The notes under the pieces were generated by a model that searched no databases, was not told where the DNA came from, and saw only the letters and a program-made list of their open reading frames with translations. Of a DNA stretch of 64,000 bases, positions 61,800 through 64,000 are shown one piece after another. A program made the translations under genes and the position numbers. Origin of the DNA: Flavivirga sp. 57AJ16 (GTDB lineage: Bacteria; Bacteroidota; Bacteroidia; Flavobacteriales; Flavobacteriaceae); NCBI RefSeq assembly GCF_028736925.1, contig NZ_JAQZAT010000002.1:1-64000 (forward strand), given 5' to 3'. How positions within the stretch are numbered: the stretch's first letter is position 1; the number at the start of each line of letters is the position of its first letter.

Positions 61800-62456
61800 A
61801 TGAGTCATTTTTTGTGTTCCTGGAGTGGGGGGAAAGATAGCTGCTATGCCTTTTATAAAGCGATGAGATTAGGATATAAACCAACAGTTTTATTAAATGT
61901 AATGAATGAATTTGGAGATCGTTCCCGTTCCCATGGTATTACAAAACCAATTTTAAAGGCGCAGGCTGAGGCTCTGGATTTACCAATTCATTTTTTTAGC
62001 AGTTCATGGACAGATTATGAAGTAAAGTATATCAAAAACCTAAAACAACTGGTTAAGGATTACCCAATAACACATACTGTTTTTGGAGATATTGATATTG
62101 AATCGCATCGATCCTGGGAAGAAAAAGTGTCTAATGCCTCAGGTTTAGAGGCTATTTTGCCTTTGTGGCAACAAAATAGAAAACAATTGGTCTTAGATAT
62201 GATTTCGGATGGCTTAGAAGCTATTATTGTATCTTGTAATAACGATTTGGGATCCGACTTTTTAGGAAGAACTATTGATGTATCCATTATTGAAACCTTT
62301 GAATCTATGGGTATTGATGCTTGTGGAGAAAATGGAGAATACCACACACTGGTTACCAACGCCCCTTTTTTTAAGAATAGGATTGATGTGGAAGTTATTA
62401 AAAAGGCGGTTTCCAGTAATTATAATTTTGCTGAATTAGTGCTTATTGAGGATTGA
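61800..62456 (+). CDS. Dph6-like ATP pyrophosphatase (diphthine-ammonia ligase family)
   Basis: A 218-residue PP-loop ATPase with SGGKDSCYAF at the N-terminus and the conserved ACGENGEYHTLVTNAPFF near the end. Eukaryotic Dph6 amidates diphthine; bacteria lack diphthamide, so the reaction must differ. It is divergent from the uptake operon, whose substrate may be cobalamin. The protein is cytoplasmic. Confidence 0.9.
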   Translation: MSHFLCSWSGGKDSCYAFYKAMRLGYKPTVLLNVMNEFGDRSRSHGITKPILKAQAEALDLPIHFFSSSWTDYEVKYIKNLKQLVKDYPITHTVFGDIDIESHRSWEEKVSNASGLEAILPLWQQNRKQLVLDMISDGLEAIIVSCNNDLGSDFLGRTIDVSIIETFESMGIDACGENGEYHTLVTNAPFFKNRIDVEVIKKAVSSNYNFAELVLIED

Positions 62457-62642
62457 TTTTGGAAGATTATTGTTTTCGGTATACGTGTGGATTCCTGCCT
62501 CCGCAGGAATGACAAGTTTTAGCAATAAGGAATAATGACACAATAACACTGTTTAATATTTAACCTTCTTTTTACGAAGCTCAAAATTTTGAGTTTTGTC
62601 ATTCCTGCGGAGGCAGGAATCCACTGGTTTAATAAATATTTT

Positions 62643-62954
62643 ATGTATAAAACAATTCACCAATACTACCTTTACATTTTAACAAATAAAACTTGTGGGA
62701 CTTTGTATATCGGGGTAACAAATGATTTGGAACGCCGTATGTTTGAACACAAAAATAAATTGGTCAAGGGCTTTACACAGAAATATGGCTTATACAAATT
62801 GTTGTATTTTGAAACTTATCAATATGTTGATGATGCTATTAAAAGGGAAAAGAACATGAAGAAATGGAAGCGTCAATGGAAAATAGATTTAATAGAAAAA
62901 GAGAATCCAAATTGGAAAGACCTGTCTAAGGATCGGACTTATTTGATTGAATGA
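62643..62954 (+). CDS. GIY-YIG nuclease family protein, copy 1 (intact)
   Basis: A 103-residue single-domain GIY-YIG nuclease of the UPF0213/YhbQ type. The motif is YLYILTNKT (first strand) then LYIGVTNDLERRMFEHKN at residues 21-38, with catalytic Tyr22, Arg31 and Glu-35/His-36 present; AIKREKNMKKWKRQWKIDLI follows. An in-frame TTG at 62589 would translate the palindrome as VIPAEAGIHW; I prefer the ATG at 62643. No partner domain is seen. It is likely to cut DNA, but substrate and role are unknown. Confidence 0.85.
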   Translation: MYKTIHQYYLYILTNKTCGTLYIGVTNDLERRMFEHKNKLVKGFTQKYGLYKLLYFETYQYVDDAIKREKNMKKWKRQWKIDLIEKENPNWKDLSKDRTYLIE

Positions 62955-63145
62955 CAAATAAAGGAAATATTATTGTTTTCGGTATACGAGTGGATTCCTG
63001 CCTCCGCAGGAATGACAAGTTTTAGCAATAAGGAATAATGACACAATAACACTGTTTAATATTTAACCTTCTTTTTACGAAGCTCAAAATTTTGAGTTTT
63101 GTCATTCCTGCGGAGGCAGGAATCCACTGGTTTAATAAATATTTT

Positions 63146-63457
63146 ATGTATAAAACAATTCACCAATACTACCTTTACATTTTAACAAATAAAACTTGTG
63201 GGACTTTGTATATCGGGGTAACAAATGATTTGGAACGCCGTATGTTTGAACACAAAAATAAATTGGTCAAGGGCTTTACACAGAAATATGGCTTATACAA
63301 ATTGTTGTATTTTGAAACTTATTAATATGTTGATGATGCTATTAAAAGGGAAAAGAACATGAAGAAATGGAAACGTCAATGGAAAATAGATTTAATAGAA
63401 AAGGACAATCCAAATTGGAAAGATCTGTCTAAGGATTGGACTTATTTGATTGAATGA
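63146..63457 (+). pseudogene. GIY-YIG nuclease copy 2, truncated by a nonsense mutation
   Basis: Same length and sequence as copy 1, but CAA at codon 60 has become TAA (63323-63325), leaving the catalytic part without its C-terminal helices. The rest of the frame remains open to a TGA at 63457, so the mutation is recent. Other changes are few and mostly silent or conservative. Confidence 0.85.
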
Positions 63458-63653
63458 CAAATAAAGGAAATATTAATGTTTTTGGTATGCGAGTGGATTC
63501 CTGCTTCCGCAGGAATGACAAGTGTTGTTTTGGCAATAAGGAATAATAACACAATAACACTGTTTAATCTTTAACCTTCTTTTTACGAAGCTCAAAATTT
63601 TGAGTTTTGTCATTCCTGCGGAGGCAGGAATCCACTGGTTTAATAAATATTTT

Positions 63654-63965
63654 ATGTATAAGACAATTCACCAATACTTCCTTTACATTTTAACAAATAA
63701 AACTTGTGGGACTTTGTACATCGGGGTAACAAATGATTTGGAACGCCGTATGTTTGAACACAAAAATAAATTGGTCAAGGGCTTTACACAGAAATATGGC
63801 TTATACAAATTGTTGTATTTTGAAACTTATCAATATGTTGATGATGCTATTAAAAGGGAAAAGAACATGAAGAAATGGAAGCGTCAATGGAAAATAGATT
63901 TAATAGAAAAAGAGAATCCAAATTAGAAAGACCTGTCTAAGGATTGGACTTATTTGATTGAATGA
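63654..63965 (+). pseudogene. GIY-YIG nuclease copy 3, truncated near its end
   Basis: Codon 91 (TGG in copy 1) is TAG at 63924-63926, removing the last 13 residues. The conserved core is intact apart from Tyr9 to Phe. It may still fold and act, since the lost tail is not conserved. The following 35 bases begin the next unit before the window ends. Confidence 0.75.
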
Positions 63966-64000
63966 AAAATAAAGGAAATATTAATGTTTTTGGTATGCGA

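What the first reader, a model, noticed from the sequence alone, without database searches (positions are those of the whole stretch)
62467..64000. Tandem GIY-YIG nuclease cassettes bounded by 27-bp inverted palindromes
Seen: three full units with periods of 503 and 508 bp, each with one GIY-YIG gene placed between a right palindrome and the next left palindrome. Left and right palindromes are exact reverse complements (27 bp), so a nuclease gene plus its flanking palindromes has the form of an element with terminal inverted repeats. Family knowledge: RAYT transposases are tied to REP palindromes, and homing GIY-YIG nucleases cut at defined sites. Inference: this nuclease may recognise its own palindrome and drive copying or spread of the unit, a GIY-YIG analogue of the REP/RAYT system.
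Basis: partly seen in the sequence, partly recalled or inferred. Interest (0 to 1): 0.75.

Follow-up and report, generated by a model that had tools for sequence, protein, structure and literature searches.

The report
Nuclease gene carried between mobile hairpins
A small DNA-cutting enzyme gene sits between two mirror-image hairpin repeats, and the same arrangement recurs in many bacteria at changing genome positions, which suggests that this enzyme is the missing partner of a common class of bacterial repeats.

Summary
Units of 503 and 508 bp each carry a tagged hairpin (TGTC-ATTCCTGC-GGAG-GCAGGAAT-CCA), a GIY-YIG gene and an inverted hairpin. Only copy 1 is intact. The host, a Flavobacteriaceae genome, has 92 such hairpins, most without a gene.

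The arrangement is general but not universal. Of 102 GIY-YIG genes examined, 69 have a hairpin within 100 nt upstream, 68 downstream and 21 neither. Tags mostly point outward, and hairpin sequence follows the nuclease's protein identity, not the host genome. In relatives the window's site is empty, or holds one hairpin, one unit or the three-unit array. A trpB-trpA site in Winogradskyella shows clean empty sites and two kinds of unit.

The hairpins fit the published CGTC-tagged REPs, which "apparently lack a dedicated transposase" (PMC3733652). In species named there (Sinorhizobium meliloti, Novosphingobium aromaticivorans) a relative of this nuclease lies between inverted CGTC hairpins. Best reading: a REP-like mobile unit whose partner enzyme is a GIY-YIG nuclease, probably of the Ssn type (recalled). 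Cutting and movement were not tested. A sister nuclease class sits beside tRNA genes with duplicated tRNA pieces.

The parts
62463..62965 (+). repeat unit 1 (503 bp): hairpin(-), joint, hairpin(+), intact GIY-YIG gene
62966..63473 (+). repeat unit 2 (508 bp), gene interrupted by TAA
63474..64000 (+). repeat unit 3 (runs to the window end; closing hairpin at contig 64003-64026), gene interrupted by TAG
62489..62512 (-). tagged hairpin (CGTC-type REP), left edge of the array
62599..62622 (+). tagged hairpin upstream of gene copy 1 (22 nt from hairpin core to start codon)
62643..62954 (+). GIY-YIG nuclease gene copy 1, 103 aa from ATG, intact; the longer TTG start at 62589 would translate the hairpin itself
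62992..63015 (-). inverted tagged hairpin downstream of gene copy 1
63102..63125 (+). tagged hairpin upstream of gene copy 2
63146..63457 (+). GIY-YIG gene copy 2, broken (TAA at 63323-63325)
63495..63518 (-). inverted tagged hairpin downstream of gene copy 2
63610..63633 (+). tagged hairpin upstream of gene copy 3
63654..63965 (+). GIY-YIG gene copy 3, broken (TAG at 63924-63926)
61800..62456 (+). left neighbour gene (218 aa ORF), anchor of the site comparison; the right anchor is the ORF beyond the window (L052 4114-4767, minus strand)

Best explanation
This is a small mobile unit of the REP kind. One tagged hairpin, a ~100-residue GIY-YIG nuclease gene and an inverted second hairpin travel together. 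The nuclease most likely recognises its own hairpin as single-stranded DNA and cuts near the unpaired TGTC/CGTC foot. Breaks made there, repaired or recombined with other copies, would spread the unit and its gene-less derivatives (solitary hairpins and inverted pairs). Shown here: the architecture, its recurrence, nuclease-hairpin co-variation, presence or absence at shared sites, purifying selection on the gene. Inferred: hairpin recognition, cutting, and that cutting causes spread. The three-fold array in the window is a later tandem duplication; two copies are dead.
For: Hairpin within 50 nt upstream of 60/101 and downstream of 63/101 GIY-YIG genes, against 14/72 and 7/58 for other ORFs in the same loci (Fisher 2e-7 and 3e-10). 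Tag direction: GTC before the upstream hairpin in 35 of 69 and GAC after it in 0; GAC after the downstream hairpin in 32 of 68 and GTC before it in 6. 80 named loci: hairpin upstream 61, downstream 64, both 52, neither 7; outward tags 42 of 61 and 47 of 64, the opposite way 7 and 8. Hairpin similarity follows protein similarity over 65 genes (Mantel rho 0.42, 0 of 2000 permutations; 37 genes with paralogues: 0.82 to the nearest homologue elsewhere against 0.58 to same-genome paralogues). Genomes rich in hairpin A carry nuclease A: 7 of 16 against 4 of 183; hairpin B: 4 of 10 against 2 of 189 (see caveats in the full report). Same-site variation in the genus and at trpB-trpA. In the own genome 20 close hairpin pairs are +-, 12 of them outside tandem arrays; the 7 -+ pairs all lie inside the two arrays. 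dN/dS 0.02-0.24 in 13 of 14 hand-picked gene pairs, the 14th saturated. Y11, Y22, G24, R32, H36, Y48, E69 invariant in 16 sequences (catalytic role recalled).
Against: No cleavage data. 33 of 102 and 19 of 80 relatives lack a detected upstream hairpin, 21 and 7 lack both; in the own genome L002, L003, L006, L013 and L018 show none and L014 only a downstream one. 9 of 16 genomes with at least 10 hairpins A lack the close nuclease, so hairpins can persist without it. Some nuclease clusters stay at one site across genera (clusters 1 and 3), which looks resident rather than mobile. No target-site duplication was recognised. In Neisseria dRS3 is reported as the integration site of a filamentous phage whose integrase may move it (PMC3898611, passages), a different mobiliser. 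GIY-YIG enzymes hydrolyse DNA (recalled), so the unit cannot rejoin DNA by itself. Co-variation can also arise from shared descent.
Confidence: 0.68

Rival explanations
1. Simple tandem duplication of a chromosomal segment that happens to hold a GIY-YIG gene between repeats; the repeats have nothing to do with the gene.
For: The repeat copies are 99% and 85% identical to copy 1 over 300 nt without gaps, two gene copies are dead, and the joint between copies repeats the right flank (my reading). 43 of 92 hairpins are solitary.
Against: The gene-between-hairpins unit recurs singly in many genomes, with mostly outward tags and co-varying stems.
Confidence: 0.08
2. The hairpins are regulatory or terminator elements of the nuclease gene, and gene plus hairpins spread passively by recombination; the nuclease has an unrelated DNA-repair role.
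For: Many hairpins lie 10-40 nt before the start codon or just after the stop, where RNA hairpins could act. Hairpins are also abundant without any gene.
Against: Mostly outward tags on both sides, dispersed copies tied to the matching nuclease, and asymmetric but conserved end pairs.
Confidence: 0.12
3. A host uptake-control nuclease of the Ssn kind: it cuts incoming single-stranded DNA at hairpins and so limits natural transformation; the hairpins are kept by the host rather than being selfish.
For: Recalled: Ssn of Neisseria meningitidis, a GIY-YIG single-strand nuclease acting on a repeat in hundreds of copies and modulating transformation (Nat Commun 2025, not held in the library). A relative with 45% identity lies among dRS3-type hairpins in a Neisseria gonorrhoeae record.
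Against: Units at different sites and different units at one site point to spread of their own. The two roles are not exclusive.
Confidence: 0.12

Closest known systems
CGTC-tagged REPs (Di Nocera et al. 2013, PMC3733652; abstract and passages seen)
   Same: Unpaired CGTC/TGTC tag, 8-9 bp stem mostly beginning AT, loop 4-5, CCA tail, inverted dimers; the paper equates Neisseria dRS3 with CGTC-1 and names S. meliloti, N. aromaticivorans and A. lipoferum as hosts.
   Different: That paper reports no associated transposase gene; the word GIY does not occur in it. Here a GIY-YIG nuclease gene lies between inverted CGTC hairpins.
REP/REPIN with RAYT transposase (PMC3116915, search listing only; passages of PMC3733652)
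   Same: Tagged hairpins, inverted pairs, dispersed gene-less copies, a partner gene flanked by the hairpins.
   Different: GTAG tag and tyrosine transposase there; CGTC/TGTC tag and GIY-YIG nuclease here.
Ssn nucleases and their NTS repeats (recalled, Nat Commun 2025; not found in the library)
   Same: Small GIY-YIG protein with a cognate repeat in the same genome; the Neisseria relative sits beside dRS3-type hairpins.
   Different: ssDNA cutting not tested here. Unit structure, empty sites and co-variation are separate evidence, and I cannot say whether that paper reports them.
UPF0213-type GIY-YIG proteins (PDB 1zg2, 1ywl)
   Same: Best solved relatives by sequence (E 9e-7 and 2e-5).
   Different: Deposited as hypothetical proteins; no repeat association stated in the listing.
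GIY-YIG homing endonucleases (features recalled)
   Same: A nuclease gene inside a unit that is present or absent at a given site; weak match to a group I intron endonuclease model.
   Different: No intron or intein recognised; the flanks are repeated hairpins.

Membership tests
CGTC-tagged REP | unpaired CGTC or TGTC tag at one end | tested here: met
   TGTC before the stem; 45 copies of the tagged pattern at up to 1 mismatch in the own genome, control 0
CGTC-tagged REP | 8-9 bp stem starting AT, loop 4-5, tail CCA | tested here: met
   ATTCCTGC/GCAGGAAT, loop GGAG, tail CCA
CGTC-tagged REP | dispersed copies and inverted dimers | tested here: met
   92 places; close pairs 20 +-, 7 -+, 4 ++, 2 --; HH or TT naming not resolved
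CGTC-tagged REP | no associated transposase gene (published state of knowledge, not a structural criterion) | tested here: inconclusive
   a GIY-YIG nuclease, not a transposase by sequence, is flanked by the hairpins in hosts named there
REP/RAYT | tyrosine (HUH) transposase | tested here: not met
   the only Pfam match of the gene is GIY-YIG
REP/RAYT | GTAG tag | tested here: not met
   tag is TGTC
Ssn nuclease (features recalled) | small GIY-YIG protein with intact catalytic residues | tested here: met
Ssn nuclease (features recalled) | cognate repeat in many copies in the same genome | tested here: inconclusive
   many copies and co-variation shown; recognition not shown
Ssn nuclease (features recalled) | site-specific cutting of single-stranded DNA | not testable with these tools
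   needs purified protein
Ssn nuclease (features recalled) | homology to the Neisseria protein | tested here: inconclusive
   45% identity to an N. gonorrhoeae protein among dRS3-type hairpins; that it is Ssn was not verified
Transposon with terminal inverted repeats | empty sites in relatives | tested here: met
Transposon with terminal inverted repeats | target-site duplication | tested here: inconclusive
   none recognised by eye at trpB-trpA; flanks too diverged at the window site

The most novel reading that the evidence does not exclude
Small GIY-YIG nucleases are the general partner enzymes of CGTC-tagged REPs, so the repeats said to lack an enzyme have one. A sister class uses tRNA genes the same way, with duplicated tRNA pieces in place of REP hairpins. 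Together they would form one superfamily of hairpin-addressed, homing-like elements that move through single-stranded DNA cutting and host repair.
Probability: 0.45. Interest if true: 0.9.

Novelty: new variant of a known kind. Interest (0 to 1): 0.75.

Why it matters
CGTC-tagged REPs occur in several phyla and include the ~700 dRS3 copies of Neisseria meningitidis (PMC3733652, PMC3898611, passages). The 2013 survey left open what mobilises them. A nuclease gene found between inverted CGTC hairpins, with matching stems and empty sites in relatives, makes that question directly testable with one purified 103-residue protein and short oligonucleotides. Several nuclease-hairpin pairs within one genome could also be a ready set of sequence-specific nucleases.

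Tried and rejected
Chance: rejected by shuffles and the reversed-pattern control. Plain tandem duplication as the whole story: rejected by single units elsewhere. RAYT partner: no such domain in the gene. Defence family: only a weak homing-endonuclease match in PADLOC (E 0.0026). Phage carriage: no match at E 1e-5 in the phage collection. Target-site duplications: none recognised. Literature: searches listed no paper on a nuclease-repeat link, but searches showed only 20 of 538, 69 and 42 papers; a guessed DOI was not held. The Ssn paper is from recall. The library holds open-licence papers only, so this is no proof that nothing is in print.

Full report
OBSERVATION. The window end holds three direct repeats at 62463, 62966 and 63474. 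Each carries hairpins in opposite orientation and one GIY-YIG gene. The window has 7 hairpin matches against 0 expected from 100 shuffles. The array closes with a hairpin at contig 64003-64026, followed by unrelated genes. Only copy 1 is an intact gene; copies 2 and 3 have in-frame stops. That the host is a Flavobacteriaceae rests on named close relatives (Mariniflexile gromovii 86%) and on genomes of the same family group whose loci are identical to named ones (L086 = L178, Ichthyenterobacterium magnum; L063 = L168, Kordia periserrulae).

THE HAIRPIN IN THE GENOME. The 4.9-Mb host genome has 93 matches at up to 3 mismatches (one place read on both strands, so 92 places) and 0 for the reversed control. 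49 have a neighbour within 450 bp and 43 are solitary. Neighbouring pairs are 20 +- (tag outward, as around the gene), 7 -+, 4 ++ and 2 --. The 7 -+ pairs all lie inside the two tandem arrays (window and C45); 12 of the 20 +- pairs lie outside them.

OTHER GIY-YIG GENES OF THE SAME GENOME. Of 21 matches, L001, L010 and L012 sit directly behind another hairpin copy or type, and L005 lies between an inverted pair of another type. L002, L003, L006, L013 and L018 show none by the scan, L014 only one downstream. The three large GIY-YIG proteins (L019-L021) show no perfect hairpin in the fetched flanks. L004, L007, L015 and L016/L017 lie beside tRNA genes.

RELATIVES. 89 of 199 family genomes have a relative at E 1e-15. 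I analysed 104 loci (15 own, 89 from relatives; further listed matches were not fetched). L015 and L016 gave no tblastn hit, leaving 102 (13 own), one of them present twice (L054, L083). 69 have a hairpin within 100 nt upstream, 68 downstream, 56 both, 21 neither; the 69 include L007, a terminator-like hairpin, and L004, in tRNA-derived sequence. The first 50-nt bin holds 60 hairpins over 101 loci upstream and 65 over 102 downstream; beyond 300 nt bins hold 1-6 and 0-9. Counted by locus, 60 of 101 and 63 of 101, against 14 of 72 and 7 of 58 for other ORFs. Tags are outward in 35 of 69 and 32 of 68, inward in 0 and 6; the rest have no GTC/GAC foot. Some clades have two different ends conserved as a pair (ATTTCCGC left, ATTCCCTC right).

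CO-VARIATION. Over 65 genes with an upstream hairpin closer than 80 nt, mean hairpin similarity rises with protein identity from 0.43 to 0.91. In 37 genes with paralogues, hairpins resemble those of the nearest homologue elsewhere (0.82) more than those of paralogues in the same genome (0.58; Wilcoxon 9e-6); Mantel 0 of 2000. Copy counts over 199 genomes: hairpin A at 10 or more copies in 16 genomes, 7 with the close nuclease, against 4 of 183; hairpin B at 5 or more in 10 genomes, 4 with the matching nuclease, against 2 of 189. Caveats: the cut-offs were set after seeing the counts; carriers were assigned by hand. Type A means at least 73% identity, leaving out G157 (74%, other ends; counting it gives 5 of 183). 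Type B was assigned by the hairpins at the gene itself, so it is partly circular. Nine of the 16 hairpin-A-rich genomes lack the close nuclease.

MOVEMENT. Window site in 12 genomes of the genus. Six share both neighbour genes: own genome, three-unit array; G202, one unit; G206, one unit in reverse plus further hairpins; G200 and G203, a single fused hairpin; G019, nothing (152 bp without hairpin). G201 has one unit but no detected left neighbour gene. G199, G204, G205, G207 and G208 had no hit to the left neighbour; the gaps between their flank matches are 29-127 nt, too short for a unit, and were not read. Related units lie elsewhere in G019, G200, G203 and G207. Over 182 loci, the window's protein cluster (single linkage at 68%, 90 loci) falls into 12 two-sided site groups plus 55 unmatched loci. 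Unmatched loci are not proven to be separate sites; some share one flank (L056, L057, L060, L154, L159, L161), and some groups are one locus fetched twice. One trpB-trpA site (15 loci) holds four protein clusters; clusters 1 and 3 stay at one site. In Winogradskyella (68 genomes; genus by the 100% match of G266 to L163) 30 loci were read; 11 did not include trpA. Of 19, 5 have only 1-3 nt between trpB and trpA, 2 hold a type A unit, 3 a unit with ATGCTGAAC-type ends and a gene 67-76% identical to L140, 2 a gene-less hairpin remnant, 7 other sequence of 84-99 nt.

BREADTH AND THE PUBLISHED REPEATS. Hairpins: upstream 61, downstream 64, both 52, neither 7; outward tags 42 and 47, the opposite way 7 and 8. 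Di Nocera et al. [quoted passage not shown] The window hairpin meets each structural feature. Of 34 plasmid-collection records with a relative I read 12 (here within 150-170 nt). Seven have a CGTC hairpin upstream, six an outward pair around the gene: S. meliloti, N. aromaticivorans, A. lipoferum (these three named in that paper), Rhizobium CIAT894, Shinella, Sphingobium. Aeromonas has hairpins on both sides in one direction, the upstream one tagged CGTC. N. gonorrhoeae has dRS3-type hairpins on both sides, but not as an outward pair. Planktothrix, Photobacterium and R. tumorigenes show none; Sinorhizobium K101 only untagged ones upstream. The S. meliloti hairpin matches 335 places in 130 records of that collection.

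PROTEIN. GIY-YIG is the only Pfam match. Best solved relatives 1zg2 and 1ywl. Of 14 hand-picked pairs, 13 gave dN/dS 0.02-0.24 and one was saturated.

MECHANISM. Shown: the unit, its recurrence, pairing of nuclease with hairpin type, presence or absence at fixed sites, selection on the gene. Inferred: the enzyme binds its hairpin as single-stranded DNA, cuts near the tag, and repair or recombination copies the unit; gene-less hairpins are non-autonomous products. Recalled support: the Ssn nuclease of Neisseria meningitidis. Against: in Neisseria a phage integrase is also reported to use dRS3 (PMC3898611, passages).

SISTER CLASS. Relatives of L015 occur in 39 of 199 genomes. 30 loci were scanned: 26 contain a tRNA gene (three of the four without are shortened stretches). 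The nearest or best-supported tRNA lies within 200 nt of the gene in 24 of 26, and all 30 tRNA entries that I compared (27 from these loci, 3 own) are on the gene's strand. 14 of the 26 carry an exact tRNA piece of 20 nt or more on the other side of the gene, and so does L016; some form tandem units of about 300-350 bp. Of 56 loci of the hairpin class scanned, 2 contain a tRNA, both over 1 kb away.

Noticed in passing
L263-L292, L004, L007, L016; own genome G000:C52:208430 and C12:251277-251812: A sister class of GIY-YIG genes sits beside tRNA genes on the same strand; 14 of 26 loci carry an exact duplicate of part of the tRNA (5' part before the gene or 3' part after it), some in tandem units of about 300-350 bp.
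   Followed up: partly
trpB-trpA intergenic site: L012, L080, L163, L189, L129 and others: One site holds four different GIY-YIG clusters in different genera, and in Winogradskyella ranges from 1-3 nt to full units of two kinds.
   Followed up: yes
G000:C45:117177-118584 (L036): Five tandem gene-less inverted hairpin pairs with similar spacers.
   Followed up: no
L012, L080, L094, L096, L108: Left and right hairpins differ from each other but are conserved as a pair across genomes, like distinct left and right ends.
   Followed up: no
L190 against L182: A MAG labelled Candidatus Nitrotoga has flanks about 89% and 85% identical to a Flavobacteriaceae MAG, which suggests a misbinned contig.
   Followed up: no
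L002, L003: Two GIY-YIG genes lie behind another repeat (CCCTGAGCTTGTCGAAGGG) that the hairpin scan did not score.
   Followed up: no
L015: The tRNA-class protein has weak PADLOC matches to PDC-S14 models (best E 7e-5).
   Followed up: no
NZ_CP119140.1: A 2.17-Mb Neisseria gonorrhoeae record in the plasmid collection is probably a chromosome.
   Followed up: no
window 62589: The longer TTG-started ORF translates the hairpin (VIPAEAGIH); automatic annotation of such genes may extend into the repeat.
   Followed up: no
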